A stretch of DNA of 64,000 nucleotides. Source: Pectobacterium punjabense. Its GTDB lineage: Bacteria; Pseudomonadota; Gammaproteobacteria; Enterobacterales; Enterobacteriaceae. Made by a program: the position numbers and the translations under genes. A model generated the notes under the pieces. That model did no database searches, was not told where the DNA came from, and saw only the letters and a list, made by a program, of their open reading frames with translations. Positions 35,015-51,117 of the stretch are shown piece by piece. The stretch is taken from the NCBI RefSeq assembly GCF_012427845.1, contig NZ_CP038498.1, positions 4,278,001-4,342,000 on the forward strand, given 5' to 3'. Numbering within the stretch: position 1 is the stretch's first letter; each line of letters opens with the position of its first letter.

Positions 35015-37092
<2,078 letters not shown>

Positions 37093-37422
37093 TCTCTTTC
37101 TCCAAAGGCGTAATAGCGCCGACGCTGCTATTGTTCAGAAACACACGAATTACTGACAGTCGTTTCTGGTATACATTCTAGGCAAAATTGTTACAAAGCA
37201 TATTAAAATTCGTGTAATCAATCATTTCCTGTGCTGTCAGTCATAAAATCATCGGCGATTTACGCAGGTTGTGGTTAGCGAAGATTGTCGTTTACGAAGA
37301 TTATAGTAACGCCGTAGCCAATAAAAAGGCACTGTGGCGGCAAAAGCTGGAGAAAAGAAAGGCGAGAAGGCGTTACTGCCCGGATTCAGGGCGGCGGCGT
37401 AGCGGTTAACACCTAACCGTGA
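37093..37422. other. Non-coding region between the siderophore island and ompR
   Basis: About 330 bp. The right-hand copy of enterobacterial synteny ends here: ompR keeps its promoter region on the left, but greB, which faces ompR in E. coli, is replaced by the island. An 'aggcgagaaggcg' repeat-rich stretch and a weak stem GGTTA-N5-TAACC (37405-37419), possibly the end of the island transcript, are the only structures seen. No integrase or insertion-sequence remnant was recognised. Confidence 0.5.
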
Positions 37423-37833
37423 TTAGCGCATCAGCTCATCCAGTACAACACGCACTGACGGCAGCGCAGGCTGGAAAAGGTGACGCGTGGTTTTATAGGG
37501 AAATAGGCTCTTTTCCGTCACAACCGTCTGCATAATCAGATTTTTGCAAAAAGGCTGGCCGGTTTTCCAATGGTAAACAGCCACGCGAGGATCGTCATAA
37601 TCGAGCAGCGCACAGGGGATATGCTTTAACCCCAATTCGGTGGCCGCACGCAGCCGATGATTGCCGTCCATGATAATCCCCGTCTCTTTCTCTATCGGCA
37701 CAGGCGTCGTCCAGCAACCACAGCGGCAAATATCCTCCATCAGACATTCCACGTTCGACATATCGACATTTTCCGAGGGCAACAAGAACTGCACGGGCGT
37801 AAGGGCAATGTGGTAGGTCATACTGTCAAACAT
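37423..37833 (-). CDS. ParB/SerK-fold protein, SbnI-like candidate free-serine kinase
   Basis: 136-aa protein with the ParB/sulfiredoxin-like nucleotide fold of SerK and SbnI, enzymes that phosphorylate free L-serine to O-phospho-L-serine. Visible: Glu21 in LLPSEN, at the place of the catalytic Glu20 of SbnI; DGNHR (56-60) where the family has DG-H-R; and FPYKTTRH (111-118) resembling a C-terminal family block. SbnI is about 254 aa and also has a heme-responsive C-terminal part, which is missing here. In this island it would supply O-phosphoserine to the SbnA-like synthase. Last gene of the leftward operon, with a good AGGAGG ribosome site. Function is inferred from fold motifs and context. 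Confidence 0.65.
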   Translation of the reverse strand: MFDSMTYHIALTPVQFLLPSENVDMSNVECLMEDICRCGCWTTPVPIEKETGIIMDGNHRLRAATELGLKHIPCALLDYDDPRVAVYHWKTGQPFCKNLIMQTVVTEKSLFPYKTTRHLFQPALPSVRVVLDELMR

Positions 37834-37895
37834 TCTCCACCTCCTGACATAACGGTTACGTGCAGCGCCGACGTAACGCCGGAGCTGACTCTCAT

Positions 37896-39056
37896 TTACG
37901 GCGTAAGACTGACGAAATAGCCCGACTGGTAGTCAACCGGTAAAAACTGCTCATGAAGCTGGCGGAAGGTGTCGTCTGCATTGAGATCGCGGAATAAATC
38001 TGGGTGAAACCACTCTGCCAGTTGCTGAATCGCAATGAAATCATAGGGGCCGTTGTAAAACTGGTGCCAGATGGCATGGAACGCGCGCTTCTGTTTAGCA
38101 ATGCTGTTGGTATAGGCCGGACGCCCCAGGAACCATTCAAGCCGCTTGCGCCCTTCCGTCATATCCTGTCCCGGCCCTAACCCAATCCAGCGCCCGCCGG
38201 GAACGAAGGCTTCAAAGTTGCCGCTGGTGATCACCACGACTTCCGGGTTTTCCACAATCACCTGTTCAGAATGCATCTGCATGAAGGTATTCGGCGCATT
38301 TTTCGCTGCCACATTGTCGCCGCCCGCCAACTGCACAAATTTACCAAAATTATCCCGACCAAACGTCAGGCAGCACTCATCGGTGTACCCCCCCAGTCGC
38401 TCAATAAACACGCGCGGGGAACGCGGTTTTTTCGCCGCTAGCACATCGGAAACGCGTTTTAGCTGCGCCTCACGGAATGCGAGAAACGCGTCGGCACGCG
38501 CTTCCTGATGGAACAGCTTGCCGAACAGGCGCAAGGTCGGCGCCGTGTTTTCCAGCGGGTGATAGCGGAAGTCGACATACACAATAGGAATGCCAACGCT
38601 GTCCAATATCCGATCGTAGCCCGCATCGACAATCGCCCGCTGCGCCTCAATGTTCATAATGATCACGTCTGGCTTGAGCGATACCGCCTGTTCCACATCA
38701 AACGTGCCCTTTTCCGTGCCGTCAAACGTCGGTATTTTTGCCAGTTGAGGGAAGCGGTCACGATACTGGTGCCACGTTGCCGGATCGGACTGAATCAGAT
38801 CGCGCCGCCAGGCGACAATTCTTTTTGCCGGATCTTCCCTGTCGAGCATCGCGACCAGATAAAGCTGACGCCCCTCGCCCAACATCACGCGCTGCACCGG
38901 TGTGTTGACTCTCACCTCACGCCCCAACACATCCTTGATGACAGTTGAGGTTTGCGCAGTTTGCTCAGCCTGCCCCACCAGCGGCGACAGACCGACCATC
39001 AACAGCGCACTCAGCAATAACCGACGGCAATGTTGCCGCATCCAACAATTACACAT
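37896..39056 (-). CDS. Siderophore periplasmic binding protein (FecB/TroA-like, class III)
   Basis: Iron-siderophore type substrate-binding protein. The start is placed at ATG 39056 (MCNCWMRQHCRRLLLSALLMVG), 8 bp into the MFS gene end; a longer frame reaches 39089. The signal peptide ends near GQAEQ. The mature protein starts with VIKDVLGREVRVNTPVQRVMLGEGRQLYLVAML, typical of the family, and has DVIIMNIEAQ and PEVVVITSGNFEAFVPG. At about 386 aa it is longer than FecB (300 aa). No ABC permease or ATPase gene is nearby, so it must use a transporter from elsewhere or serve another role. Confidence 0.82.
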   Translation of the reverse strand: MCNCWMRQHCRRLLLSALLMVGLSPLVGQAEQTAQTSTVIKDVLGREVRVNTPVQRVMLGEGRQLYLVAMLDREDPAKRIVAWRRDLIQSDPATWHQYRDRFPQLAKIPTFDGTEKGTFDVEQAVSLKPDVIIMNIEAQRAIVDAGYDRILDSVGIPIVYVDFRYHPLENTAPTLRLFGKLFHQEARADAFLAFREAQLKRVSDVLAAKKPRSPRVFIERLGGYTDECCLTFGRDNFGKFVQLAGGDNVAAKNAPNTFMQMHSEQVIVENPEVVVITSGNFEAFVPGGRWIGLGPGQDMTEGRKRLEWFLGRPAYTNSIAKQKRAFHAIWHQFYNGPYDFIAIQQLAEWFHPDLFRDLNADDTFRQLHEQFLPVDYQSGYFVSLTP

Positions 39057-40299
39057 TTTCGATATTTCCCTTCGTCGAGAGAGAGTCATGTTTTTCCACC
39101 TGTATCCGCAGGCGTCGTAGCAGCATCAGCGAGACGAGAAAAGTCACCAGATACGCGGCACCAACGCAGAAGAACAGTGAACGTAATCCGGGGGAATAGA
39201 GAACCAATCCGCCCAAAGCAATGCCCAGAATCGAGGCAAACTGGCTGACGCTTTGCGCCACGCCGAGTATGTAACCCTGCTGCCCGGCACCAGCCGCGCG
39301 GGAAATCAACGCCATCAGAACGGGCGTCGTTGCCCCCAACAGCACGCCCCACAGGAAATAAAGCGGGATGAAAATCGCAATATTCAGGATCGTAGCGGCC
39401 GTCAATGTCACGATAGCGCAGGCCAGCATGACCACGCACAGACGGCTCAGCGTCTGCGACAGCGAGAGATTTTCAAAATAGCGCGCCCACAGCGACGCGG
39501 AGACAATCACGCCGGTCGCCTGCAAGCCATAACACAGCCCGATAACCCACTTATCCACCTGAAAGAAGCCGTCCATGTAGAGGGAAAACGGCGTTTGCGG
39601 AATCATGCGGCTAGCCAGCAGCAGGCCAGAAATCAGCAACAGGCCGGGGATCGGCGACAGCGCCCAGAGCCGCCTGCGGGGAATGGTTTTCGCCTGCACG
39701 TCCGCAGGCGGTGTCGTTGGCACCGCCGGGGCGACATGCGGTAGGAACAGCGCCACAGTGATGCCACACAGCGCGCAGAGGATCGCGGCACTCAGGTTGA
39801 TCCAGAAGAAGTTCAGATAATCGAGAATCAGCCCACCAACAATCGCTCCCACTAGCGATCCCACGTTGGTGGAGACCTGAAGCCAGGCAAACAGCCGCGT
39901 GCGCTGTAACGGACTGACCACCGCAACGCCGTACGCCTGCGCGGGTGCAATATAACCCGCACAGGCACCCTGAATAAAACGCAGCGCGACGATCGTCCAG
40001 ATATCATTGGCCCACGCCAGCCCAAGTTGGGTCAACGCCAGCCCGAACAGCGCGCGGATCATCATGGCTTTGTTGCCCAGCCGATCGCCCATCCGTCCCC
40101 AGAAAGCGCTGGTCAGCATAATGCCCAGCATCGGCCCGACGTATACGGCAATCCCCGCGAGACTCAGTTCCGCACCGGACGACATGCTTTCCAGATGCAG
40201 CGGCCAAAACGGCCCGCTCATCTCCATCGCTCCCATTGCCACTAGCTGTACGACAAACATAAAGTGGATGATGAACGCGACCTGCCCGCTCAAGCGCAT
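39049..40299 (-). CDS. MFS transporter, probable siderophore exporter
   Basis: Major facilitator protein of 416 aa with about 12 hydrophobic segments. The MFS loop 2-3 motif appears as GRMGDRLGNKAMMIRALFGL and the family motif after it as RFIQGACAGYIAPAQAYG. By position and size it corresponds to SbnD/PvsC/AlcS-type exporters found in IucA/IucC siderophore loci, which export the finished siderophore across the inner membrane. Between the opine-dehydrogenase gene (37 bp upstream) and the binding-protein gene (overlap). Confidence 0.8.
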   Translation of the reverse strand: MRLSGQVAFIIHFMFVVQLVAMGAMEMSGPFWPLHLESMSSGAELSLAGIAVYVGPMLGIMLTSAFWGRMGDRLGNKAMMIRALFGLALTQLGLAWANDIWTIVALRFIQGACAGYIAPAQAYGVAVVSPLQRTRLFAWLQVSTNVGSLVGAIVGGLILDYLNFFWINLSAAILCALCGITVALFLPHVAPAVPTTPPADVQAKTIPRRRLWALSPIPGLLLISGLLLASRMIPQTPFSLYMDGFFQVDKWVIGLCYGLQATGVIVSASLWARYFENLSLSQTLSRLCVVMLACAIVTLTAATILNIAIFIPLYFLWGVLLGATTPVLMALISRAAGAGQQGYILGVAQSVSQFASILGIALGGLVLYSPGLRSLFFCVGAAYLVTFLVSLMLLRRLRIQVEKHDSLSTKGNIENV

Positions 40300-40336
40300 A
40301 CGTCAGCTCCTTCTGCTTTCACAGCGTCACCCCGTC

Positions 40337-41494
40337 TCATTTCAGCCACTGTAGCGGGAAATAGTCGGGACGATCCTGCGTCAATGTTCCCATGTAATCG
40401 CTGCACCACCGGTAGACTTCCTCAATGTACGGCACGCTAACGGCCAGGTTCTCTGCAAGGGTCACCAGCAGGCTCAGGCCGTAGGCAATATCCTCCTGAA
40501 ACACCCGATGCTGCGTATCAAACACGTACCCACCAGCATCATGTTTTCGCAGCGGCAGACCGATGCCGTGATAAGCCTGATTGGTGCGCAGTACGGAAAG
40601 CATCGTGTGCGCATCGGCAATCTGCTCGCCATAAGCATCGATAATCTCCTGCTTGAGCGGCAGTACCGAACCCAACTGCACGCTAAGCCGCGCCTCCAGC
40701 GCCGCACACAGCCGCTGGTTCTCCTCGTCCATACGTTCCAGATAATAGGCTCCGAGTTCCGGGCAATCATTCCACCAGCACAGCGGCTGCGGGAAAGGCC
40801 GGGCATGCCACTGTCCGTAGGGGCCGATAAGACCATAAATCACCGCACTGTGCATAATTGGGTTACCCGGCGTCAGCGTGATCTCCAAATAATCCGGCAA
40901 GAGCACAACGGGCGCAGCATAGAGCCGTTGCAGCAGCGCCACCAGCGCCTGCTGGCTCGCAGCGGTTTCACGCCGATGGGTGGCGACATACAGCGTGGAT
41001 TTTTCCCCCCCCATCTTGATCGACTGACCCGGCAGCAAATCAAACGCAATGTGCGCCACATCCTTCATTCCCCAAATCACTGCATTTGGGCAAGCGGCCA
41101 GCTCGCGTTCGGCCAGCCAGTCAAAACCACAAAAACCGGGAATTGCGCCAACGTAAACCGGTTTGTTGGCAGGTAAATGGGGAACGATCCGCGCCAGAAT
41201 ATCAGCGCGAAAGTTAGCGGGAACGGTGATGATAACCACATCGGCATCACGGCAGGCTTCCGCCGGATCGCAGGTCACGCAGTCTGGCGTAGCCGTCAGT
41301 ACCTCGCCATCCGGCAGCAGCGCGTGTAGCCGTTTACCGTGCTGTTGGTAGGCTGCCAGCAGACGGGGATGGCTGCCCAGCAGCGTCACCTCGACGTCCG
41401 GTAACTGCGTAAACAGCACCGTGGCGAGATGGCCGGTCTTGCCAGCCCCACAAATCACCACGTTAAGCGGCTGTGCACTTAGCGATTCGCTCAT
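40337..41494 (-). CDS. Octopine/nopaline dehydrogenase family protein, candidate SbnB substitute
   Basis: NAD(P)-dependent opine dehydrogenase of 385 aa. The Rossmann start is NVVICGAGKTGHLATVLF (residues 11-28) and the substrate domain carries NPIMHSAVIYG (211-221) with His215 at the place of the catalytic His of octopine dehydrogenases (His212 in the scallop enzyme). Opine dehydrogenases join or split an amino acid and a 2-oxo acid through a secondary amine. Here it lies between the exporter and an SbnA-like synthase, where staphyloferrin B loci have SbnB. It could oxidise the opine-like SbnA product to L-2,3-diaminopropionate and 2-oxoglutarate. Family assignment is firm; the reaction is inference. 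Confidence 0.82.
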   Translation of the reverse strand: MSESLSAQPLNVVICGAGKTGHLATVLFTQLPDVEVTLLGSHPRLLAAYQQHGKRLHALLPDGEVLTATPDCVTCDPAEACRDADVVIITVPANFRADILARIVPHLPANKPVYVGAIPGFCGFDWLAERELAACPNAVIWGMKDVAHIAFDLLPGQSIKMGGEKSTLYVATHRRETAASQQALVALLQRLYAAPVVLLPDYLEITLTPGNPIMHSAVIYGLIGPYGQWHARPFPQPLCWWNDCPELGAYYLERMDEENQRLCAALEARLSVQLGSVLPLKQEIIDAYGEQIADAHTMLSVLRTNQAYHGIGLPLRKHDAGGYVFDTQHRVFQEDIAYGLSLLVTLAENLAVSVPYIEEVYRWCSDYMGTLTQDRPDYFPLQWLK

Positions 41495-41504
41495 CCTTGG
41501 CTCC

Positions 41505-42521
41505 TTAACTTGCCTGCTCCAGAGAAATCGCGTTGCCCAGCCAGCGATCCAGATCGTGCCACACGCTGTTATCCGTCAGATTACGTGCCGCCAGCCACTC
41601 TTCGTTAAACACCGTATGCAGGTATTTTTCACCGCCGTCGGCGATCGCCAACACAACGTTGCCACCGATACGATCCTGATAGATCAGTTCCAGCGCTTTA
41701 TAGATCACCCCGCCGGTCGAGCCGCCAACCAGCAGACCGTAGTGGCGTGCGATATAGCGTGCTGTTTCAAATGCTTGCGAATCCGAAACCTGCTCACCGC
41801 AGTCGATACAGCTGTAATCCAGCACCAGTCCCACCGTATCCCCCGCTGGCGTACCAGTGCCGGACTGATAGTAGGGTTTGCCGGGGTGGCCGAAGACGAT
41901 GGAACCCACCGGTTCAACGGCAATGGTCATAATATCCGGGTTGTGCACCTTCAGGCCGTGAGAAATACCGGTCATCGATCCCCCCGTGCCCACGCAACCG
42001 ACAAACGCGTCGATCTTGCCAATCTGACTGAACAGCTCGCGGACAAGATCGGCATAGCCGCCCGCATTCGCCGCATTGTCCGACTGATTCATAAACACCG
42101 CACCGGGAATGTCCTGTGCCAGCTGCGCCGCCATACGCTGACGTTCCACTACCGCCACCTCATCTTCGCCATAATCACCGGAGACATAGCGAATTTCCGC
42201 CCCCAGCGCGCGCATGATGGCAATTTTGTCCGGTGCCGCATGATGATCGACCACGGCAATAAAGCGCAGACCGTATTCGATCGACGCCAATGCCAGTCCG
42301 ATACCGGTATTACCCGATGACGACTCGACAATGGTGCCACCGGGGCGGATTTTCCCTGACTTCAGTCCGGCAACAATCATATTTCTCGCCATGCGATCCT
42401 TCATGCTGCCACCGGGGTTGTTCTTCTCCACTTTTAAAAACAAACGCGTGTCCCCATAGGGAACGGGAATGTGTATAACGGGCGTATTACCAATCAAATC
42501 AGTTACTTTACTCAGGATCAT
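41505..42521 (-). CDS. PLP-dependent synthase, SbnA-like (O-phosphoserine + glutamate)
   Basis: Fold-type II PLP enzyme of the cysteine synthase family, 338 aa. The PLP Lys is Lys41 in NPGGSMKDR, the SbnA/cystathionine synthase variant rather than the NPSxSVKxR of CysK. SSSGNTGIGLA binds the substrate carboxylate and GTGGSMTGIS the PLP phosphate. The block EPVGSIVFG resembles SbnA. SbnA makes N-(1-amino-1-carboxy-2-ethyl)-L-glutamate. The start is ATG 42521 with GGAG at good distance; an upstream in-frame GTG at 42545 overlaps the decarboxylase gene. Placed between the dehydrogenase and decarboxylase genes, which argues for diaminopropionate synthesis over cysteine synthesis. Confidence 0.8.
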   Translation of the reverse strand: MILSKVTDLIGNTPVIHIPVPYGDTRLFLKVEKNNPGGSMKDRMARNMIVAGLKSGKIRPGGTIVESSSGNTGIGLALASIEYGLRFIAVVDHHAAPDKIAIMRALGAEIRYVSGDYGEDEVAVVERQRMAAQLAQDIPGAVFMNQSDNAANAGGYADLVRELFSQIGKIDAFVGCVGTGGSMTGISHGLKVHNPDIMTIAVEPVGSIVFGHPGKPYYQSGTGTPAGDTVGLVLDYSCIDCGEQVSDSQAFETARYIARHYGLLVGGSTGGVIYKALELIYQDRIGGNVVLAIADGGEKYLHTVFNEEWLAARNLTDNSVWHDLDRWLGNAISLEQAS

Positions 42522-42534
42522 GGTTCTGCTCCAT

Positions 42535-43938
42535 TCAGTTATCACTGGAAAAAATCAGCTCACCTTTCTTACCTTTGAAAGCGCACAGGCGCGCAGGCAG
42601 CGGATGCCGATGAAACGCGTTCTCCAGCAGGTCCATTTGGTATCCCGCCGTATTCGCGTAAATCAGTAAATCGCCTGGCTGCGGCACGGTTCGAAAATGA
42701 ATCAATCGGTTCGTAATGACATCGTCGTCCAGACAGCTGTGTCCGGCGATCCAGGATTTGCCCGGCACCAGAGGCGTGTCTTTTTTGACGGAAAAAACAT
42801 GCAGAGGATCAATCAAAAACTCAGAGTTAAACCAGGTTTCACACGCGCTAAAGCTGCTGCCTTCCACAAACACGACGTGGTTGCCATCCGGCTGGCGGCG
42901 CGTGCGCGTGACGCGAAACACGGTAATCGCACTTTGGTCAGCCAGGCTGCGTCCCGGCTCAATCGCCAGAATCAGGCCGTGCTGCTTGAGCACGTCCGCT
43001 ACGCGGTTCTGTCCGATTGAGCCGGACAGGAATGCTTCAAGATAGTCGGCTGCCGAACGCTCGCCGCCGTACGGGTAAAACGAGGTCGGCACCTGACCGT
43101 GGCGGTAATCCGCCGCATTCTGCTTCGCTAAATAATCCTGATAGCGTGAAGCCGAAAGATATTGAATCGGCAATCCGCCGCCGATATCAATAATGACCGG
43201 CTGCAACCCCCGGGACTGCGCCCGCTCCAGTAATGGCAATAGCTCGGCGAATGCCGCCACGCGGGTATCGGGCTCATAGCCGCCGAGATGGAAATGGAAG
43301 CCTTCTAAACGCAGCGCATCCTGCCTGACGCTCAGCGCCTCCAGACAACGTTCGACCTCATCGGCCAACATGCCAAAACGGCTAGCCTGTGCGAACGATG
43401 GGCGATAGCGCAGCAGGACCCGCACCGGCTTCGTCACGCGCAGCAAATCTGCCAGCGCGAGCACCTCGTCGAACTCTTCCGGTGAATCCAGCACGATAAG
43501 CGCACGGTGATGAACCAGCGCCGTCAGGAACTCACGCGTTTTTGCCGGGCCGGTGGCGCACAGCCGTGCGCCATCGCCGCCTGCCCGCAGCGCATCGTTC
43601 AGTTCCTGTAGGCTGGAAACATCCACGCCAACACCCGCATTAACCGCCGCCTGTACCAGCCCCGGCGATTTGTTCACCTTCGCGCCGTAGTACAGGCGGC
43701 AGTCCACGTCGTGACGCTGCAACACAGTTCGCAATGCCGCGATATTGTTAGCCACGGTGTGCGGCCAGACAATATTCAGCGGAGACCCATACTGTTCAAC
43801 CAGCCATGACAACCTTTGGGTCGAGTCGAAAAGGAACTGTTCAATCTCACTATCCAGATAAGGCGTCAGTCTTTCAGGCCAGTGTGCCTGCATAACAGAG
43901 TGGGAAGACGCTGCGGCAAAGCTAAACAGGTTGCTCAT
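42535..43938 (-). CDS. PLP-dependent amino-acid decarboxylase, SbnH/PvsE-like
   Basis: Fold-type III PLP decarboxylase (467 aa) of the diaminopimelate/ornithine decarboxylase family. Lys87 in YYGAKVNKSP forms the Schiff base; GFHFHLGGYE, DIGGGLPI and EPGRSLADQ bind PLP phosphate and ring; the C-terminal active-site Cys/Asp is in GHSCLDDDV near residue 400. In siderophore loci such enzymes (SbnH, PvsE) remove the carboxyl of a diaminopropionyl or citryl-diaminopropionyl unit, leaving a diaminoethane moiety. 39 bp downstream of the receptor gene, in the same direction. Confidence 0.83.
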   Translation of the reverse strand: MSNLFSFAAASSHSVMQAHWPERLTPYLDSEIEQFLFDSTQRLSWLVEQYGSPLNIVWPHTVANNIAALRTVLQRHDVDCRLYYGAKVNKSPGLVQAAVNAGVGVDVSSLQELNDALRAGGDGARLCATGPAKTREFLTALVHHRALIVLDSPEEFDEVLALADLLRVTKPVRVLLRYRPSFAQASRFGMLADEVERCLEALSVRQDALRLEGFHFHLGGYEPDTRVAAFAELLPLLERAQSRGLQPVIIDIGGGLPIQYLSASRYQDYLAKQNAADYRHGQVPTSFYPYGGERSAADYLEAFLSGSIGQNRVADVLKQHGLILAIEPGRSLADQSAITVFRVTRTRRQPDGNHVVFVEGSSFSACETWFNSEFLIDPLHVFSVKKDTPLVPGKSWIAGHSCLDDDVITNRLIHFRTVPQPGDLLIYANTAGYQMDLLENAFHRHPLPARLCAFKGKKGELIFSSDN

Positions 43939-43977
43939 TGCTATCTCCTAACGTTCGGTTCCTGAAAACGCATGCCC

Positions 43978-46152
43978 TTAGAAATCAACCGCCACGGACA
44001 GCATCAGCGTCCGCGGCGTTCCTTGCGATACCGTGCTGAACGACGTCACGCCAGACCAGTAGTTGTGGTCAAAAGCGTTAAGGACATCTGCTCGGAACGT
44101 GGTCGGTGCGTTATAGATGCGCGTCTTGTAACGGGCGCCGAAATCAACGGTGGTCCAGGAAGGAATGGATTGAGTATTGATGGTGTTGACGTTCTGCTTC
44201 CCGTTATGGGTGACGTTGGCGTTCAGCGTCAGATCGCGCAGGAACGGCAGGTCATATTCCAAGCCGGCGTTAGCCTGAAAACGCGACGTACCCGGTGCGC
44301 GCTTGCCCTGCGCCCCCGGTGTCACGCTTTTGGTTAGTTCAGCATCCAGCAGCATCACGCCGCCCGTCAGACGTAGATCCTCCAGCGGTGAACCGACCAC
44401 ATCCAGTTCGATACCCCGATTGCGCTGCTCGTTAGCCTCAATAAACTCACTGCCCGGTCCGTTAGCTAACGCGCCGCTCGGTTTGGTGATCTGGAAGACA
44501 CTCAGCGTAGAAATCGTCCCCAGCGCATCCACTTTTACCCCAGCCTCGTACTGCTTGCTCTTATACGGCGACAGTACTTGACCTGCATTCGATGCATTAT
44601 CTGGAGCAATTTGGCCTTGGCTCAGACCTTCAATGTAGTTGGCGTAGAGCGAGACGTGCTGCCAAGGTTTAACAATCACCCCGAGCATCGGAGTAATTGC
44701 ACTCTTGTCATAAGAAGAACGCACAACAAAGTTATCTGAGCTAACTTTCTGGTAGCGTAACCCACCAGTAACCTGCAACGTATCGTTCCAGAAACCGAGC
44801 GTATCCGCCAACGCGATACCCGATAGTGCGGTGGAAGAACGCTTAACAACATCAGGTTCGTTAATGCTCTGCTCAGGGATATAGACTGGGTTATAAATGT
44901 TACTGTTAACATTTAACGTAGAGCGAATACCACTTGATAACTGATCACGATAGTAGCTAGTTTGTGCGGATAATTTGTGCGTTATCGAACCTGTTTCAGC
45001 TTCTGCCCGAATACCAGTTGCCAAGTTATAACGACTGACGTTAGAACGAAAACCCACCATGCTGGATACTGAGTCACCATTATTATTAATCAGCGGGACC
45101 TGCTCCGATACGCGATGAACATGACTGCTAGAGCCTCCAGCATCGGTAAACCAAGTGACGTTATCCGCCAAATCGTATTCGGTATGCAGCAACACCGACT
45201 GATCTTTGGAGTGCCAGAATCCCCACGGCTGGGAAATATTGGTGTTACCATCCGGTGCATCGGGCACGGTCACACCCTGCGCGAACAAATAAGGGCGAGA
45301 CGGCGCACGGGTTTTCAGATGCTGAGTGATAAGATCCAACGTGGCGCGGAAGCGTTCTGATGAGAAATCCAGCCCGAGCGCGCCGACCTGCGTGCGCTTG
45401 TCGCTGCCGTCCCACACGGTGTCACCATAGCCATAGTTACCATTAAAACGGACGCCGAGCAGATTATTATTGTCCAGCGCATAAACGCGGGAGATATCCG
45501 CATGCTGCGTGAGTTGAGAATCAGACTGCCAGCTGGTGGTGAGGCGGGTCAGATTGCCGACGGTAGTCGGGCGTTTGGTGACGGCGTTAATCACGCCGCC
45601 CACGCTGCTGTTAGGTGACAGCCCGTACAGCAGCGCCGACGGCCCTTTCAGCACTTCCACCCGCTCGATGTAGTCGGTCATCAGTTGGTAGTTGGGCGCG
45701 ACGCCGTAGACACCATTCATGGCGATATCGCTCAGATTACCTTCGTTGAGCGGGAAACCGCGGATGTAATAAGAATCCAGCAGACCGCCCTGCGAACTAC
45801 TGACTCGCACCGAGGCGTCATGCGCGACTACCTGCCCCAGCGTCTGCGCCTGCTTGTTTTCAATAAACGATGAGGTCATGTTGCTGACATTAAATGGCGT
45901 ATCCATCACGTCCTTTTTGCCCAGCAGCCCGGTGCTGGACGCACGCGCCGACATGCCGCCCGCCACCAGCCCCTGCGCAGCCTCAGCGTCTTTGGCTTCG
46001 ACCACGATAGTGGAATCATCGCGCTCGCCCGTTGCCGACTGCACGGGTATCGCGATGCCGCTTAGCACAGCCGTTACGGCGATGGCCAACGCGGAGGGAA
46101 TAGGAAAACGAGTCTTCCCGGTAGGTGGAGTGAAGTTCTTCCTGGCGTTCAT
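43978..46152 (-). CDS. TonB-dependent siderophore receptor
   Basis: Outer-membrane 22-strand barrel with plug (about 724 aa). The start is placed at ATG 46152 (MNARKNFTPPTG); the open frame begins with a TTG 7 codons earlier. Signal peptide to about IPVQSA, then a TonB-box-like DDSTIVVEA, plug with VMDTPFNVSNMTSSFIENKQAQTLGQVVAHDASVRV, YYIRGFPLN and VEVLKGPSALLYGLSPNSSVGGVINAVTKRP, and a barrel ending in LMLSVAVDF with a terminal Phe. No N-terminal signalling domain, so it is not of the FecA type. Belongs to the FoxA/FhuA-like siderophore receptor group; should import the siderophore made by this island. Confidence 0.92.
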   Translation of the reverse strand: MNARKNFTPPTGKTRFPIPSALAIAVTAVLSGIAIPVQSATGERDDSTIVVEAKDAEAAQGLVAGGMSARASSTGLLGKKDVMDTPFNVSNMTSSFIENKQAQTLGQVVAHDASVRVSSSQGGLLDSYYIRGFPLNEGNLSDIAMNGVYGVAPNYQLMTDYIERVEVLKGPSALLYGLSPNSSVGGVINAVTKRPTTVGNLTRLTTSWQSDSQLTQHADISRVYALDNNNLLGVRFNGNYGYGDTVWDGSDKRTQVGALGLDFSSERFRATLDLITQHLKTRAPSRPYLFAQGVTVPDAPDGNTNISQPWGFWHSKDQSVLLHTEYDLADNVTWFTDAGGSSSHVHRVSEQVPLINNNGDSVSSMVGFRSNVSRYNLATGIRAEAETGSITHKLSAQTSYYRDQLSSGIRSTLNVNSNIYNPVYIPEQSINEPDVVKRSSTALSGIALADTLGFWNDTLQVTGGLRYQKVSSDNFVVRSSYDKSAITPMLGVIVKPWQHVSLYANYIEGLSQGQIAPDNASNAGQVLSPYKSKQYEAGVKVDALGTISTLSVFQITKPSGALANGPGSEFIEANEQRNRGIELDVVGSPLEDLRLTGGVMLLDAELTKSVTPGAQGKRAPGTSRFQANAGLEYDLPFLRDLTLNANVTHNGKQNVNTINTQSIPSWTTVDFGARYKTRIYNAPTTFRADVLNAFDHNYWSGVTSFSTVSQGTPRTLMLSVAVDF

Positions 46153-46189
46153 CAACAAAGTTATCCATCTCAAAATGAGGAGTGAAAAA

Positions 46190-46226
46190 GATGCTCCCGT
46201 TTTTCAGCCTGTGGGGCAGGAGCATC
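46190..46226 (-). terminator. Attenuator-like hairpin between the synthetase and receptor genes
   Basis: GATGCTCC (46190-46197) and GGAGCATC (46219-46226) pair; read on the minus strand the stem is followed by TTTTTC. It sits just after the synthetase stop and before the receptor start. It may cut transcription partly so that the synthetase is expressed more than the downstream genes, or end a separate transcript. Confidence 0.55.
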
Positions 46227-46234
46227 GCCATACA

Positions 46235-48136
46235 TCACGATCCGATGCGGGTTTCTTCCCCTTCCGCGAGGAAGGGATTGCTCAGACCATGCTGAATTCG
46301 GTAATCGCGGTATTCCTGAATGTGCATGCGCAGCAGCGAACGCGTATACCAGGGCTGGGTCAAAAACATGTCGCGTTCGGTCTGCCACAGATCGCCATCA
46401 ACGCGCGACTTCACCGCGTCAAACGCCGCGGCGGTTTCTTCCTTCATCACCTGCCACAGCCGGGCATCGGCAAAGCCGTATTCCGCGCTGAGCGCCAGCG
46501 CCAGTTCGTGCAGGTGGCTGACAAAGCAGGCATCAACGACAAACATCCGCACGGGTTCGATATCGTCTTCAAACACCGTGGGCAGAATGCCGGGCCAGAC
46601 GTAGGGTTGCAGATGATGCCCGCGCTGACGCAGCAGCGGTGCGTAGGTGCGCCCGTCGCCGAAATCACGGATTAATAGCCCTTGCGCGACACCTTCAGAT
46701 GAAAAGAGGATCTGGCTGTTCTGCTGATGCGCTTCCAGCCCGATGCCGTACAGCAGATAGATAGCGATAACAGGACGAGTAACGGCGCGCACGTATTGGC
46801 GGAACCATGCCTCTGCGCCGAGCCCGGAAAGCGTAACCAGCTCGGTGAACAGTGGCTGGTCGCGGTGAGGCAGCGCCGTAAACAGTGTGGCGACGGTCAC
46901 GGGCAGCGCGCCGTCAGCGCGTTCATAGGCGTGCGCATCGCGGAAAACGACAGAGAGGTGTTTGCCCGGCGCGTCATCCTGATGAACCGCGTGCTTGTAG
47001 TGGAAAGCGGCTTCTTCGCGGAAAAATTCCAATCGCTGTTCGAATCCCCCTTCCTGCACCAGAATCGCCTCGATAATGGCGCTGATGCGCGGCCCCATGT
47101 GGATCGATTTCGCCTGTAGACTACGCATTTCGCTGGTCATCCAGATGGCGACAGGCAGTTTGATGAAGGGGGAAGAAGGCGGTTCAACAGGCAAAACCGT
47201 ACGAAACGACATGCCCGGAAGCGTGATGAGATCGGGGCCGTCGGTAAGCAGAATCCCTTCGGCGATCTCGTCCGCGTAGTGGGATTTCACCCAGTTTTCC
47301 AAATGCCAACTGTGGATGGGCAGCGGGAGCCATTGCGCCTCATCCAGCCCCTGTTGATTCAGGCGCTGCTTCCATTCCTGCCAGAGCGCCGGGAACGCTT
47401 GAGCAAACCACTGATGAAAATCATCGACATGTGGCATACATTCCACATACGCCATATCACGGCGTAGTGCGGTAATACGCAATGGTACACGGGCATTGAA
47501 TTCGGGTGACAGCAGTTGGACGTCTTCGTCACTCAGGCCCGGACGAGATTTCCAGGTCGGGTAGTAGGGATGCCCTTCCAGCGATCCCCACTGATCGAGA
47601 AACATGGCGGCATCGCGAATACTTCGCTGCCGACGCAGCCATTGCGTGAAATATTCTTGCCCATCCTGTCGCATGGCCTCAGCCACCTCAGCACGCCATT
47701 GACACCGATAGCGCCGGGCATTCGTATCATTACGGATGCTGTTAGCCACATCTCTTTTCAAGCCATTAATGCCGCTTTCTTCAGGATGGAAATCAAAACT
47801 ATCGCGGAATACATCAATCAACCGCTCGTGACCGTTGACGGGAAAAGATGTCCCATCTGAATGAATGAGAGAAATATTTCCATTATTAATATAGGTATTT
47901 GCCGGGGCTAGATAAATATCATCAAATTTCACCTCCCCTTTTCCATCTCGTAAAACAAGCGTTGCTGACCTGGAATTAACCCCATTTAAAATAAGGTCAT
48001 TTCTATTCAAAATTCCTTCAGCAAAAAAGCAACGAATCAATCGCCTCAACGCATTTTTATTTGAATAATCAGAGAGAAAATCACCTGAAATCTGATGTAT
48101 ATCCTTGTGCTTAACTGCGTCTACCTTGATATTCAT
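46235..48136 (-). CDS. IucA/IucC family NIS siderophore synthetase
   Basis: NRPS-independent siderophore synthetase that adenylates a carboxylate (usually citrate) and condenses it with an amine. 633 aa, typical length. Family blocks: LEGHPYYPTWKSRPGLSDEDVQLLSPEFNARVPLR, KLPVAIWMTSEMRSLQAKSIHMGPRIS, and GLEAHQQNSQILFSSEG. The usual His-Pro-x-x-K-R pattern is HPYYPTWKSR here, with Tyr in place of the second His. The start is ATG 48136, with an AGGAG ribosome site. It is the only NIS synthetase in the window, whereas staphyloferrin B and achromobactin loci have three. Type A, B or C cannot be settled by eye. First gene of the leftward operon. Confidence 0.92.
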   Translation of the reverse strand: MNIKVDAVKHKDIHQISGDFLSDYSNKNALRRLIRCFFAEGILNRNDLILNGVNSRSATLVLRDGKGEVKFDDIYLAPANTYINNGNISLIHSDGTSFPVNGHERLIDVFRDSFDFHPEESGINGLKRDVANSIRNDTNARRYRCQWRAEVAEAMRQDGQEYFTQWLRRQRSIRDAAMFLDQWGSLEGHPYYPTWKSRPGLSDEDVQLLSPEFNARVPLRITALRRDMAYVECMPHVDDFHQWFAQAFPALWQEWKQRLNQQGLDEAQWLPLPIHSWHLENWVKSHYADEIAEGILLTDGPDLITLPGMSFRTVLPVEPPSSPFIKLPVAIWMTSEMRSLQAKSIHMGPRISAIIEAILVQEGGFEQRLEFFREEAAFHYKHAVHQDDAPGKHLSVVFRDAHAYERADGALPVTVATLFTALPHRDQPLFTELVTLSGLGAEAWFRQYVRAVTRPVIAIYLLYGIGLEAHQQNSQILFSSEGVAQGLLIRDFGDGRTYAPLLRQRGHHLQPYVWPGILPTVFEDDIEPVRMFVVDACFVSHLHELALALSAEYGFADARLWQVMKEETAAAFDAVKSRVDGDLWQTERDMFLTQPWYTRSLLRMHIQEYRDYRIQHGLSNPFLAEGEETRIGS

Positions 48137-48301
48137 AACCACTCCTCATACCGATAAAACAAGTAATAATTAATTGCAGTAACGTATAAAAAGGTGTCAT
48201 TAGGACTCGGGTTAACACATCCCGAAACATAATAAAAATGTCGTGATAGATAGATTGAAAAATAATGAACGGAAAGCTAGCATACCATTAACGTCAATGT
48301 A

Positions 48302-48320
48302 AATAGGTATCATTCTTATT
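48302..48320. promoter_or_regulatory. Candidate Fur box in the divergent siderophore promoter region
   Basis: On the minus strand, AATAAGAATGATACCTATT matches a commonly seen Fur-box form (AATGAGAATGATTATCATT) at 14 of 19 positions. It lies 67 bp upstream of the aldolase gene and about 165 bp upstream of the synthetase gene in a 244-250 bp AT-rich divergent spacer. It predicts iron repression of both transcripts. Seen by eye only. Confidence 0.55.
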
Positions 48321-48386
48321 CGCAATTAATTAGTTACATTTTAATAAAATTATCTTAAATCAATTAATTAACAGAAGGAGAGCAGC

Positions 48387-49274
48387 ATGGAATACGCTAA
48401 GACCTATCTCTTCGTACCCGGTAATGCACCCCGTCGCTTTCAGCATGCTGTTAACTGCGGTGCCGATGCCGTGATATTTGATTTAGAAGATGCTGTTCAT
48501 CCTGATGAAAAAAACCAAGCCCGAGAAAATATTATTCAGTGGTATGAAAAAGATACTGCCGTCTCTGATGTAAATTGCAAAAAATATATACGTTTAAATA
48601 AGTTTGGCTCAATAGCGTTTAGTGAAGACATCGAGTTCCTGAATAAGCTCAATAACAAAGAGGGATTAAGACGTAACGAAAAATTAAGAAATAAAGTAGT
48701 CAAGTGGGAAATTGTCTTACCTAAAATAGAGTCCGCAGAAATGCTGAATGAAGCGAGGGAAATGATAAATCGCAATAAAAATAAACTAGAAAATGTGAAT
48801 ATTATTGCGATTATTGAAACAGCACGGGGGTTGCATAACGTAGAGGAAATTTGCGCCGCAGGCATAGAAAGGGTCGCATTCGGTTCACTGGATTTTTCAC
48901 TCGATATCCATTGCGATCAATCCCTATATGCTTTGCTGTATGCCAGAAGCCGTATTGTATTAGCTTCCAGATTGGCCGACTTGCCGCCGCCAATAGATTG
49001 CGTCAATCCCGACTTCACGCATCACGAGCGGGTGTTAGCTGACGCATTGCACGCACGCTCGCTCGGGTTCTCAGCCAAACTGTGTATCCATCCCTCGCAG
49101 ATCGATGCCGTTCAGCAGGCTTTCGCGACAGATCACAGCAAAATAGACTGGGCAAAACAGGTGTTGAAAGCGGCCGAACATAGCTACGCTTTTCAGATAA
49201 ACGGCGAGATGGTTGACTTACCCGTCATTGAGCAGGCCAGGCAACTATTGCGATCGCAAAATGCAGATGACTAA
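48387..49274 (+). CDS. HpcH/HpaI aldolase, CitE-like (possible citrate or hydroxy-acid supplier, SbnG role)
   Basis: 295-aa TIM-barrel lyase of the citrate lyase beta (CitE) family. Visible: KTYLFVPGNAPRRFQHAVNCGADAVIFDLEDAVHPDEK, IRLNKFGS (substrate Arg), IIAIIETARGLHNVEEI (metal Glu), AFGSLDFSLDI (metal Asp), and LGFSAKLCIHPSQIDAV. It faces the siderophore operon across the Fur-like site, so it is likely co-regulated. In staphyloferrin B synthesis the aldolase-fold SbnG makes citrate from oxaloacetate and acetyl-CoA; this protein may do the same or make another hydroxy-acid. The gene body has a visibly higher A/T content in its first two thirds than its neighbours, consistent with transfer. 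A ribosome site AGGAG precedes the ATG. Confidence 0.78.
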   Translation: MEYAKTYLFVPGNAPRRFQHAVNCGADAVIFDLEDAVHPDEKNQARENIIQWYEKDTAVSDVNCKKYIRLNKFGSIAFSEDIEFLNKLNNKEGLRRNEKLRNKVVKWEIVLPKIESAEMLNEAREMINRNKNKLENVNIIAIIETARGLHNVEEICAAGIERVAFGSLDFSLDIHCDQSLYALLYARSRIVLASRLADLPPPIDCVNPDFTHHERVLADALHARSLGFSAKLCIHPSQIDAVQQAFATDHSKIDWAKQVLKAAEHSYAFQINGEMVDLPVIEQARQLLRSQNADD

Positions 49275-49342
49275 ACCTGCTTCAGGCGACATCGCACTTT
49301 TCACGTCAGCGATAAATCCGCCCGGCGTAAGCTGGGCTACGC

Positions 49343-49822
49343 TTATGACTTAACGTAATCAATCGAATTAACGAACCACTCGCGCGGCCCCTCTGGCGTA
49401 TTCACGGTGAACTCCTCATCAACCGCTTTTTTCAGCATCGCACGCGCCATCGGGGAGTCAATCGAGATATAGTCTTTATTATCACCGTAGATCTCGTCCG
49501 GGCCGACAATCCGCAAGCGCTTCACATCACCCTGCTCATTTTCGATCTCGACCCAGGCACCAAAAAATACGCTGCCGTCCTGCTGCGGTGAGTAATCGAC
49601 AATTTTCAATTCCGTCAGACATTTTCTCAGGTAGCGCACACGGCGATCGATCTGGCGTAACAAACGCTTATTGTAGGTATAGTCCGCATTTTCTGAGCGA
49701 TCCCCCAAGCTTGCTGCCCAGGAAACGATTTTGGTAATTTCCGGGCGCTTTACATTCCAGAGATGTTCATGCTCAGCCCGCAGTTTGTCATATCCCTCGC
49801 GGGTAATCAGATTGGTTTTCAA
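49343..49822 (-). CDS. greB: Transcription elongation factor GreB
   Basis: Rescues backtracked RNA polymerase by stimulating transcript cleavage. 159 aa, clearly GreB: ITREGYDKLRAEHEHLW, WAASLGDRSENADYTYNKRLLRQIDRRVRYL (coiled coil with the acidic tip DRSENADY), KIVDYSPQQDGSVFFGAWVEIE and DYISIDSPMARAMLKK. The start is TTG at 49822, at the position of the E. coli ATG (KTxLxTREGY follows). This TTG overlaps the hipA TGA in a TTGA, so greB is coupled to hipA. In E. coli greB is co-directional with tex and divergent from ompR; here it is on the opposite strand to tex. Confidence 0.95.
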   Translation of the reverse strand: MKTNLITREGYDKLRAEHEHLWNVKRPEITKIVSWAASLGDRSENADYTYNKRLLRQIDRRVRYLRKCLTELKIVDYSPQQDGSVFFGAWVEIENEQGDVKRLRIVGPDEIYGDNKDYISIDSPMARAMLKKAVDEEFTVNTPEGPREWFVNSIDYVKS

Positions 49823-51117
49823 GTCAGTAACCCCGCTAGCGCTTTAGTGCGTACAACGTCCGGCGTACCTTCAAAAATAAAAGGGTTGAGAAACATACGG
49901 CCCCAAAACAGCTTGCGGTCCACTTCACTCAATACGACTTCATCACAGATGTCTTCCCAGCATGCACGCACCGTTTCTATCTGATGCATGATGATCTCAA
50001 TAGCGTCAGCTTCACCCAACAGAAATTTAGGAGCGGCCTCCAGACAGAGGGAGAGATTACTCATCCTGTTTTCGCCAGTGATCAACATTGCCTGCGTCGC
50101 CTCATTACCCGCCCGATTCTGCGGACAGATATCATAGGCTGGTGTCAGCTTTAGAGCGCGACCATCCCAGAATGCCGCGTGATTTCGGGCATGATCGTCG
50201 GTGTTTCCGCAAATGATATTGAAGGTTAGACGGCCAAACAGCTCGCGCAGCGTCGCTTTCGGTTCGTCGAAGCGTTGCCGAATGATATCCGAGAATTCTT
50301 CGTAGCTCGCATATCTCGCCATCATTTCATCAAGGCCGAAAAGCGTCAGTGCAGAGACCATCAGCCTACGTTTCCAGCCATCTTCTACTTTCGTACGGTC
50401 AAAACGTTCTATCAGAATCACGTCCTTCCCCGCCGTCTGCCGAAAGTGCACCGGAGCCACATTTAAACCAACACTCGCAGCCAGTCGCATCGCAATGTAT
50501 TCGGCCTTAACGACGTTGTAGGTATCCGTTGAGGATGAAAATTTTGCGATAAACTTATGGTTCTCATCTTCAATCATCGCTTTCGGCCGAGCCCCGCCCA
50601 ACGAACTCCCATGGAAAAGTGCTTGTTCAAGCTCAGGCGTCAGCAAAGCCCCCTTTTCCACCATGGTTGCAGCCAGCATCAACTCTTCAAGAGAAGCATT
50701 TTGGGCTGAACGCGGGACATACTCTGTTGGCGATGCTTGAAAATCAAGCCCGCCAATTCTGTCTGAGCCTGACTCAAGCAGGTATGTCAGTTCATCCAGC
50801 ATACCGCTATCCGCTCCCCTGCCTCTGGCCCCCATGAGTCGATTAAGGATAACCCGTCGCCCCCACGCGTCAGGTGCGGCATCGCGTAATGCACTCGCCT
50901 GCCATAGGCCCGCTGCTGGCGGGATAGCACCACGCATTAACGGCAGTTCAGGTTCATAGATAGGGATCGCGTCTTTTCGCTCCAGATAGTGACGACCATA
51001 ATTGAAAATAAGTCGGTCGCCGTCCCGGCTCAATAAACCAGCCACAACGGGCTTCGTCGCATCAGGCAACCAGATCCACACGTAGGCTTTGCCGACAGCG
51101 TTATCAGAAGTCATCAT
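49819..51117 (-). CDS. hipA: HipA-family Ser/Thr kinase toxin
   Basis: Toxin of a HipBA module (432 aa; E. coli HipA 440). N-subdomain VAGLLSRDGDRLIFNYGRHYLERKDAIPIYEPELPL is family-typical. Kinase motifs: Gly-rich loop with possible autophosphorylation Ser in GSSLGGARPKAMIE, ATP Lys in KFIAKFSS, catalytic loop NTDDHARNHAAF (Asp and Asn) and metal-binding LTPAYDICP. E. coli HipA phosphorylates glutamyl-tRNA synthetase to produce persistence; the target here is unknown. The start overlaps the end of hipB, and the stop overlaps the TTG start of greB. Confidence 0.88.
   Translation of the reverse strand: MMTSDNAVGKAYVWIWLPDATKPVVAGLLSRDGDRLIFNYGRHYLERKDAIPIYEPELPLMRGAIPPAAGLWQASALRDAAPDAWGRRVILNRLMGARGRGADSGMLDELTYLLESGSDRIGGLDFQASPTEYVPRSAQNASLEELMLAATMVEKGALLTPELEQALFHGSSLGGARPKAMIEDENHKFIAKFSSSTDTYNVVKAEYIAMRLAASVGLNVAPVHFRQTAGKDVILIERFDRTKVEDGWKRRLMVSALTLFGLDEMMARYASYEEFSDIIRQRFDEPKATLRELFGRLTFNIICGNTDDHARNHAAFWDGRALKLTPAYDICPQNRAGNEATQAMLITGENRMSNLSLCLEAAPKFLLGEADAIEIIMHQIETVRACWEDICDEVVLSEVDRKLFWGRMFLNPFIFEGTPDVVRTKALAGLLT

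What the first reader, a model, noticed from the sequence alone, without database searches (positions are those of the whole stretch)
37423..49274. Hybrid siderophore island combining staphyloferrin-B-type diaminopropionate genes, an opine dehydrogenase and a single NIS synthetase
Nine genes around one Fur-like site encode, in leftward order, an IucA/IucC synthetase, TonB receptor, SbnH-like decarboxylase, SbnA-like synthase, opine dehydrogenase, MFS exporter, periplasmic binding protein and SerK/SbnI-like protein, plus a divergent CitE/SbnG-like aldolase. Staphyloferrin B synthesis (established: SbnI, SbnA, SbnB, SbnC/E/F, SbnG, SbnH, SbnD) is matched role by role except for SbnB and two of three synthetases. 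This points to a complete precursor, assembly, export and import set for a carboxylate siderophore that is neither staphyloferrin B nor achromobactin. I know of no description of this exact set.
Basis: partly seen in the sequence, partly recalled or inferred. Interest (0 to 1): 0.9.

Follow-up and report, generated by a model that had tools for sequence, protein, structure and literature searches.

The report
Rhizobactin-type siderophore gene island
This plant-pathogen gene island is a set already described in another bacterium under the name proteobactin, whose product is not given in the papers read here; the evidence suggests that it makes rhizobactin, a long-known iron-scavenging molecule whose genes those papers had not established.

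Summary
The Fur-like site is no better than chance by consensus. The set is not undescribed: it matches the Proteus mirabilis proteobactin locus pbtA-I gene for gene, and a review of that work mentions the Pectobacterium relative. What was missing is the product. The staphyloferrin B reading is weak: one NIS synthetase, no SbnB over cut-off, SbnA-like protein below the SbnA cut-off. Rhizobactin fits better: ethylenediamine joined to alanine, lysine and malate. Kinase plus SbnA-like enzyme would join phosphoserine to lysine, the decarboxylase would give the ethylenediamine, the opine dehydrogenase the alanine unit, the single synthetase the (citra)malate. Pseudomonas sp. FEN, a proven producer of rhizobactin and rhizobactin B, carries this cluster, which holds its only IucA/IucC match. 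Sinorhizobium meliloti, the original producer's species, carries it on plasmids. The CitE-like gene is present in FEN (mainly citramalyl product) and absent from the S. meliloti locus examined (malyl product known in the species), so rhizobactin B is predicted for Pectobacterium. No enzyme or metabolite was tested.

The parts
37423..37833 (-). SerK/SbnI-fold protein, 136 aa, probable free serine kinase giving O-phosphoserine
   Evidence: NCBIfam SerK 40.9 bits, below cut-off; AF2 model matches SerK and SbnI structures; DG[N/H]HR motif in the family alignment
37896..39089 (-). Periplasmic binding protein for the ferric siderophore
   Evidence: PF01497; in 68 of 80 loci
39049..40299 (-). MFS exporter, FslB-like
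   Evidence: PF07690; FslB 178.6 bits, below cut-off
40337..41494 (-). Opine dehydrogenase, proposed to add a carboxyethyl (alanine) unit from pyruvate
   Evidence: PF02317; octopine dehydrogenase 3c7a E 5e-21 and top fold match; H215, R330, D335 invariant in 81 of 81
41505..42545 (-). SbnA-like PLP enzyme, proposed phosphoserine + lysine beta-replacement
   Evidence: SbnA 234.7 bits, below cut-off 349.95; 65-81% identity in the loci outside Pectobacterium/Samsonia, apart from a split copy in L079
42535..43938 (-). LysA-fold PLP decarboxylase (Y4yA family by name in rhizobia)
   Evidence: LysA 109.1 bits, FslC 25.9; Y4yA name
43978..46173 (-). TonB-dependent siderophore receptor
   Evidence: TIGR01783 324.3 bits, over its cut-off
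46235..48142 (-). NIS synthetase, proposed (citra)malate ligase to lysine N6
   Evidence: PF04183 + PF06276; best NCBIfam FslA 266.4 bits, cut-off 1000; only PF04183 match in the genome
48387..49274 (+). CitE-like lyase/synthase, proposed citramalate supply
   Evidence: PF03328; RipC 158.7 bits, CitE 128.1, both below cut-off; in 36 of 80 loci
48299..48323 (.). Intergenic block conserved in Pectobacterium/Samsonia, possible iron-responsive operator
   Evidence: Alignment; not above chance by Fur consensus

Best explanation
A rhizobactin-type siderophore locus, orthologous to proteobactin pbtA-I. Inferred route: (1) the SerK-fold kinase makes O-phosphoserine; (2) the SbnA-like enzyme joins it to the alpha-amine of lysine, the reaction SbnA does with glutamate (recalled); (3) the LysA-fold decarboxylase removes the serine-derived carboxyl, leaving N2-(2-aminoethyl)lysine; (4) the opine dehydrogenase reductively condenses that amine with pyruvate, giving the carboxyethyl (alanine) end; (5) the single NIS synthetase joins the CH2-carboxyl of citramalate or malate to N6 of lysine; (6) the CitE-like enzyme supplies citramalate from acetyl-CoA and pyruvate; (7) the MFS exports the product, and receptor and binding protein bring the iron complex back, with a permease/ATPase from elsewhere. 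The order of steps 4 and 5 is open. Predicted product: rhizobactin B ([M+H]+ 392.203) with some rhizobactin (378.187). Shown here: gene content, conservation, and presence in a proven producer as its only IucA/IucC match. Everything about catalysis is inferred.
For: Pseudomonas sp. FEN makes rhizobactin (378.1866, C15H27N3O8) and more rhizobactin B (392.2020, C16H29N3O8, citramalate by NMR). FEN's published genome (CAJFDC01) carries the whole set (L040), and that cluster holds the only PF04183 match in the FEN genome. Rhizobactin's parts are described as ethylenediamine, alanine, lysine and malic acid, found first in Ensifer (Sinorhizobium) meliloti DM4. Of 44 plasmid records with a dehydrogenase match, 4 are S. 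meliloti, and pSINME01 of AK83 carries the set without citE. Each enzyme class of the cluster has a place in that structure, and one synthetase fits one acyl group. citE is present in the mainly citramalyl producer and absent from the S. meliloti locus; it is in 36 of 80 loci and follows the NIS tree with 3 changes against 26.4-26.8 in shuffles (near-copies inflate this). The dehydrogenase's closest solved folds are octopine and carboxyethyl-norvaline dehydrogenases, which use pyruvate (recalled). No SbnB passes its cut-off in any of 4 genomes with the cluster.
Against: No mutant, enzyme assay or metabolite links the genes to rhizobactin in any species. FEN is one strain, and its authors tied rhizobactin B to rhbAB homologues instead; FEN has a diaminobutyrate aminotransferase over the family cut-off on another contig, and a below-cut-off relative about 14 kb from this NIS on the same contig. 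The genome of S. meliloti DM4 was not available. That this SbnA relative takes lysine and this dehydrogenase takes an aminoethyl-lysine is without precedent known to me. FEN has citE yet also makes malyl rhizobactin, so citE does not decide the acyl group alone. S. fredii CCBAU 45436 carries the dehydrogenase on a plasmid, yet its petrobactin mutant is treated as non-producing (passages), so that copy may be silent or incomplete. No Fur box passes chance in the window. The island has no inner-membrane permease. The dehydrogenase model is of medium confidence, lowest around the aligned catalytic histidine.
Confidence: 0.8

Rival explanations
1. Diaminopropionate route: the SbnA-like enzyme uses glutamate, and the opine dehydrogenase works backwards in place of SbnB, cleaving the opine-like intermediate oxidatively to diaminopropionate and 2-oxoglutarate; one FslA-like NIS then makes a dicitryl-ethylenediamine, a short rhizoferrin.
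For: Nearest NCBIfam models are SbnA, FslA and FslB; SbnA and the opine dehydrogenase occur together in 79 of 80 loci and no SbnB passes its cut-off in 4 genomes; the intermediate of SbnA is itself opine-like (recalled).
Against: FEN, whose only IucA/IucC match lies in this cluster, makes rhizobactins; its paper reports two iron ligands, neither of this mass. All proteins are below the sbn/fsl cut-offs. FigA/FigC and the R. pickettii synthetase gave no siderophore with diaminopropionate (these are other enzymes).
Confidence: 0.1
2. A hydroxycarboxylate siderophore built on oxaloacetate or 2-oxoglutarate by a type B NIS synthetase fed by the CitE-like enzyme, as the proteobactin literature proposes.
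For: Proposal reported in the review of P. mirabilis, with PbtA in one clade with Y4xN.
Against: It leaves the SbnA-like enzyme and the opine dehydrogenase without a stated role; citE is missing from 44 of 80 loci with the same core; the CitE-like protein scores higher with RipC than with CitE.
Confidence: 0.05
3. An opine metallophore for zinc, nickel or cobalt, of the staphylopine/pseudopaline kind.
For: Opine dehydrogenase next to exporter and TonB receptor; staphylopine-type dehydrogenases appear lower in the fold list (ranks 5-14).
Against: No nicotianamine-synthase-like protein among the nine; the closest folds are octopine dehydrogenases; a NIS synthetase is always present (80 of 80); the P. 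mirabilis cluster is reported as iron-repressed.
Confidence: 0.02

Closest known systems
Proteobactin locus pbtA-I of Proteus mirabilis (Himpsl 2010, not held; seen through the review PMC11026637, section 27)
   Same: Same nine genes in the same order with citE divergent in P. mirabilis locus L067; proteins 48-81% identical.
   Different: P. mirabilis has a FecCD permease and an ABC ATPase beside citE, the window does not; the passages and section I read give no product structure.
Rhizobactin / rhizobactin B (S. meliloti DM4; Pseudomonas sp. FEN, PMC7676072)
   Same: FEN and S. meliloti AK83 carry the gene set; its enzyme classes account for each part of the molecule.
   Different: The FEN authors pointed to rhbAB homologues; there is no genetic proof; the product is untested in Pectobacterium.
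Cupriabactin (cub genes, Cupriavidus pinatubonensis JMP134; original paper not held)
   Same: CubA is a TonB receptor and a cubE mutant is defective in the siderophore system; strain HN-2 of the species has receptor, decarboxylase, SbnA-like, dehydrogenase, NIS, MFS in that order and one IucA/IucC match.
   Different: That JMP134 cub is this set is inferred from species and gene order; no citE in the locus held; structure not given in the passages read.
Staphyloferrin B (sbn)
   Same: SbnI-, SbnA- and SbnH-type chemistry and a NIS synthetase.
   Different: No SbnB over cut-off, one NIS, an added opine dehydrogenase, CitE/RipC type instead of SbnG; SbnA, SbnC and SbnF matches below cut-off.
Rhizoferrin (fsl/fig; PMC7857480, passages)
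   Same: Single NIS, MFS exporter and decarboxylase; nearest NCBIfam matches FslA and FslB.
   Different: Far below the cut-offs; FslC 25.9 bits only; extra SbnA-like enzyme, kinase, opine dehydrogenase and CitE-like gene.

Membership tests
Proteobactin (pbt) locus | Nine genes: NIS, receptor, decarboxylase, PLP enzyme, opine dehydrogenase, MFS, binding protein, small protein, divergent CitE | tested here: met
   P. mirabilis L067 shows the same nine in the same order; the review's list matches
Proteobactin (pbt) locus | Permease and ATPase genes beside citE | tested here: not met
   Present in L067; in the window greB follows citE
Rhizobactin biosynthesis | Gene set present in a proven producer and holding its only IucA/IucC gene | tested here: met
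   Pseudomonas sp. FEN: 1 PF04183 match, inside L040
Rhizobactin biosynthesis | Gene set present in the species of the original producer | tested here: met
   S. meliloti AK83 pSINME01, and 3 more S. meliloti records with the dehydrogenase; strain DM4 itself not available
Rhizobactin biosynthesis | Product of [M+H]+ 378.187 or 392.203 lost on mutation | not testable with these tools
   Needs LC-MS; masses computed
Cupriabactin (cub) | Identity of the JMP134 cub genes with this set | tested here: inconclusive
   Only strain HN-2 could be read (L064); gene order and single NIS agree
Staphyloferrin B | SbnB dehydrogenase | tested here: not met
   Best 79.6 bits against cut-off 326.9 in the whole genome
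Staphyloferrin B | Three NIS synthetases (SbnC, SbnE, SbnF) | tested here: not met
   One PF04183 match in the genome
Staphyloferrin B | SbnA equivalog | tested here: not met
   234.7 against 349.95 bits; the S. meliloti protein also below, 242.1
Rhizoferrin | FslA-type synthetase at the curated cut-off | tested here: not met
   266.4 against 1000 bits
Opine metallophore (cnt) | Nicotianamine-synthase-like enzyme in the locus | tested here: not met
   No such match among the nine proteins
Opine dehydrogenase superfamily | Fold, and residues aligned with octopine dehydrogenase H212, R324, D329 (roles recalled) | tested here: met
   Aligned to H215, R330, D335, invariant in 81 of 81; top fold matches
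SerK/SbnI free serine kinases | SerK fold | tested here: met
   Foldseek ranks 1 and 3-9, but the protein is about half as long (136 aa) and far below the SerK cut-off; activity not testable

The most novel reading that the evidence does not exclude
Proteobactin, cupriabactin and the Sinorhizobium y4x-type loci all make rhizobactins. The SbnA relative is a phosphoserine:lysine ligase rather than a diaminopropionate enzyme, the opine dehydrogenase is a siderophore-finishing enzyme, and the CitE relative is a siderophore-dedicated citramalate synthase that shifts the product from malyl (rhizobactin) to citramalyl (rhizobactin B).
Probability: 0.55. Interest if true: 0.72.

Novelty: new member of a known kind. 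Interest (0 to 1): 0.6.

Why it matters
It would join two halves of a puzzle: gene clusters whose product structure I did not find (proteobactin, probably cupriabactin, y4x) and a molecule whose genes were not established in the papers I could read (rhizobactin, 1985; rhizobactin B, 2020). If right, it defines an enzymatic route to aminopolycarboxylate siderophores spread over alpha-, beta- and gammaproteobacteria, among them soft-rot pathogens, P. mirabilis and nitrogen-fixing symbionts, and it corrects the tie between rhizobactin and the rhizobactin 1021 (rhb) genes. Each step is testable with purified enzymes and two known masses.

Tried and rejected
Staphyloferrin-B-like route with the opine dehydrogenase in place of SbnB: my own first idea (note), lowered to a rival once the FEN chemistry was read. 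Triabactin of Pseudomonas sp. NCIMB 10586 as the closest described product: rejected, its operon has three genes (NIS, MFS, receptor). The rhizobial paper PMC12815270: its passages show that its 'rhizobactin' is rhizobactin 1021. The rhbAB assignment for FEN: FEN has one IucA/IucC match, and its aminotransferase over the cut-off lies on another contig than the cluster (C16 against C13), though a below-cut-off relative (281.5 against 401.6 bits) lies about 14 kb from the cluster's NIS on C13; that rhizobactin 1021 needs two NIS is recalled; whether the authors' 'diaminopimelate decarboxylase' is this cluster's decarboxylase was not checked. They also cite a proposal of rhizobactin-like siderophore genes in P. 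corrugata, not checked. The hydroxylase family PF13434 was uninformative: 12 of 14 control genomes also match. Fur consensus: no better than chance. NIS columns that separate citE+ from citE- loci were listed (36 against 42 rows, L064 and L032 left out of the citE- side) but are confounded by a deep split of the tree; I draw no conclusion.

Rows dropped or chosen: L048 (short NIS, 268 aa) left out of the NIS tree, in which 22 of 77 inner branches are open and the Providencia row is very long. For the serine-kinase alignment 30 sequences were used: the window's and 29 of 70 usable relatives. For the dehydrogenase alignment 20: the window's and 19 of the 120 listed of 397 found. The genome scan kept the best 80 of 97 confirmed places.

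Literature limits: the library holds no bioRxiv and few subscription papers. Himpsl 2010 and the cupriabactin paper tried by a recalled DOI are not held; the first is known to me through a review, the second through passages of two later papers. That I found no paper joining rhizobactin with proteobactin, cupriabactin, Y4xN or opine dehydrogenase rests on (3 papers with two of six terms; I opened 2 of them, PMC5322557 only as a listing; 0 papers each; 5 papers on Pectobacterium and staphyloferrin, 1 opened) and the listing (14 papers, 3 opened). Papers seen: PMC7676072 abstract, passages and sections 21-22; PMC7849696 part 1 of 2 of the text; PMC11026637 passages and section 27; PMC10080011 and PMC12815270 abstract and passages; PMC7857480, PMC10846153, PMC8776902, PMC5484520, PMC7652902 and PMC3323832 passages; all others as search listings only.
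Full report
1. The observation. The nine reading frames are present at the stated coordinates and in the stated order: eight leftward genes from the NIS synthetase (46235-48142) to the small kinase-like gene (37423-37833), and one rightward gene (48387-49274). The island lies between ompR (36373-37092) and greB (49343-49822). In 25 genomes of the genus (the window's own included), 17 have both NIS and dehydrogenase between ompR and greB, which are there 11.6-12.4 kb apart; 3 (G001, G014, G015) have only NIS remnants in a 6.2-6.7 kb gap; 5 (G004, G006, G010, G011, G019) have ompR and greB 149-523 bp apart. Of the 17, one (G018) has a broken dehydrogenase frame and another (G021) a broken NIS frame; the other genes were not checked. 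The genus is Pectobacterium, inferred from named homologues of 91-95% identity; the species is not assigned.

2. What is not supported. A Fur box by consensus is not above chance (12 of 19; 607 of 1000 shuffles reach it). An intergenic block at 48299-48323 is conserved with few changes in the 8 Pectobacterium/Samsonia loci aligned with the window; iron repression is reported for the P. mirabilis cluster, so iron regulation remains likely. The island has a receptor and a binding protein but none of its nine proteins is a permease or ATPase; 17 FecCD matches lie elsewhere in the genome.

3. Conservation. A scan of genome contigs with an alignment of the dehydrogenase confirmed 97 places and kept 80 loci, from Pectobacterium, Samsonia, Proteus, Providencia, Arsenophonus, Pseudomonas, Burkholderiales, Vogesella, Thalassospira, rhizobia and others. 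Within 10 kb on either side (less where contigs end): opine dehydrogenase 80, NIS 80, SbnA-like 79, decarboxylase 79, MFS 79, receptor 75, serine-kinase-like 73, binding protein 68, CitE-like 36 of 80. All five core genes are in 78 of 80; the two misses (L048, L076) are cut at the end of the stretch. The dehydrogenase and the synthetase thus form one unit in three classes of Proteobacteria. The loci were chosen by the dehydrogenase, so this says nothing about NIS genes that lack it.

4. The set is already described. A 2024 review (PMC11026637, section 27), citing Himpsl 2010, lists for proteobactin a NIS (pbtA), TonB receptor, lysine/ornithine decarboxylase, PLP enzyme, octopine/opine/tauropine dehydrogenase, MFS, binding protein, hypothetical protein, and a divergent citrate lyase beta subunit (PbtI), with permease and ATPase PMI0229-0230. 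The P. mirabilis locus L067 shows exactly these, permease and ATPase included. The review states that the synthetase's closest relative is in Pectobacterium (54%); I find 55% to the window. It places PbtA with Y4xN of S. fredii; the symbiosis plasmid of NGR234 carries kinase-like gene, decarboxylase, SbnA-like, dehydrogenase, NIS and MFS between type III secretion genes. Cupriabactin of Cupriavidus pinatubonensis JMP134 is probably another: CubA is a TonB receptor, and cubE mutants are defective in the cupriabactin system; strain HN-2 of that species has receptor, decarboxylase, SbnA-like, dehydrogenase, NIS and MFS in that order, and one IucA/IucC match. None of the passages and sections I read gives a structure for proteobactin or cupriabactin.

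5. The product. Rhizobactin is described as ethylenediamine coupled with alanine, lysine and malic acid, found first in Ensifer (Sinorhizobium) meliloti DM4, and as different from rhizobactin 1021 (PMC7676072). Pseudomonas sp. FEN makes rhizobactin (m/z 378.1866, C15H27N3O8) and more rhizobactin B (392.2020, C16H29N3O8), in which NMR shows citramalic acid and alanine. Formula masses agree (378.1871, 392.2027). The FEN genome (CAJFDC01) contains the present cluster (L040: kinase-like gene and citE on one strand; decarboxylase, SbnA-like, dehydrogenase, NIS, MFS, receptor, binding protein on the other, with a FecR-like gene in between). FEN has exactly one PF04183 match, and it lies in this cluster. 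The authors tied rhizobactin B to two rhbAB homologues; the FEN aminotransferase over the family cut-off lies on a different contig, a below-cut-off one about 14 kb from the NIS. S. meliloti carries the cluster on plasmids (4 of 44 plasmid records with a match are S. meliloti; AK83 read in full).

6. Mechanism. The gene set covers the molecule. Ethylenediamine bridge on lysine N2: phosphoserine from the SerK-fold protein, an SbnA-type beta-replacement with the alpha-amine of lysine, then loss of CO2 by a decarboxylase that scores higher with diaminopimelate decarboxylase than with citryl-ornithine decarboxylase; its predicted substrate resembles diaminopimelate (inference). Alanine end: opine dehydrogenase with pyruvate; the residues aligned with H212, R324 and D329 of octopine dehydrogenase are invariant in 81 of 81 (roles recalled). 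The AF2 model of the dehydrogenase is of medium confidence (pLDDT 76.6, below 50 at 207-210 and 212-218, which includes the aligned histidine); its top fold matches are octopine and carboxyethyl-norvaline dehydrogenases. Malate or citramalate amide: one FslA-like synthetase; such enzymes join citrate to ornithine (FigA) or putrescine and cadaverine (R. pickettii); which carboxyl they use is recalled. Citramalate: the CitE-like protein, best match RipC, an itaconate-pathway lyase (that RipC acts on citramalyl-CoA is recalled).

7. The citE prediction. citE is in 36 of 80 loci and follows the NIS tree (3 changes, shuffled means 26.4 and 26.8; near-copies inflate this). It is in the mainly citramalyl producer FEN, and absent from the AK83 and NGR234 loci of Sinorhizobium; S. 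meliloti DM4 made malyl rhizobactin. These are two points, not a statistical test. The window has citE, so rhizobactin B is the first guess for Pectobacterium. FEN makes some malyl product too, so citE would bias the outcome, not dictate it.

8. Membership. The island meets the pbt gene-set criterion but not the adjacent permease/ATPase. It fails staphyloferrin B (SbnB, number of NIS, SbnA cut-off), rhizoferrin (FslA cut-off) and opine metallophores (no nicotianamine-synthase-like protein). It meets the genomic criteria I could test for rhizobactin; product and mutants are untested, so the claim is 'works like a rhizobactin pathway', at 0.8. I count it as a new member of a known kind: the gene set is known, the product assignment is the new part.

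9. Limits. No experiment here shows any reaction. S. fredii CCBAU 45436 carries a plasmid copy of the dehydrogenase, yet its petrobactin mutant is treated as non-producing (passages), so some copies may be silent. That I found no paper making the link rests in an open-licence library without preprints.

Noticed in passing
window 49819-51442: A HipA-like protein (PF07804) with a small HTH partner sits beside greB next to the island, a possible hipBA-type module.
   Followed up: no
window 37093-49342, ompR-greB interval: The interval varies in the genus: 17 of 25 genomes hold NIS and dehydrogenase there, 3 hold NIS remnants, 5 are nearly empty (149-523 bp).
   Followed up: partly
L097 6204-13249 (S. 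fredii NGR234 pNGR234a): The kinase-decarboxylase-SbnA-dehydrogenase-NIS-MFS set lies between nopX and nopL on the symbiosis plasmid, without receptor or binding protein in the stretch shown; a second dehydrogenase copy is on another NGR234 replicon (H29).
   Followed up: no
L079 and L086 (Sinorhizobium shofinae CCBAU 251167): One strain carries two copies of the cluster on different contigs.
   Followed up: no
NZ_CP042515.1 56664-57797 (Serratia marcescens plasmid): A 67 kb Serratia plasmid carries the dehydrogenase at 57% identity, a possible vehicle of transfer.
   Followed up: no
protein hits P0041 and P0083: Single homologues at 65% and 61% are labelled Salmonella enterica and Escherichia coli; mislabelling or rare transfer was not checked.
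   Followed up: no
L032 and L047 (Arsenophonus): Insect symbionts keep the cluster; in L047 citE and NIS are each split over two frames, and L032 has no citE in the stretch held.
   Followed up: no
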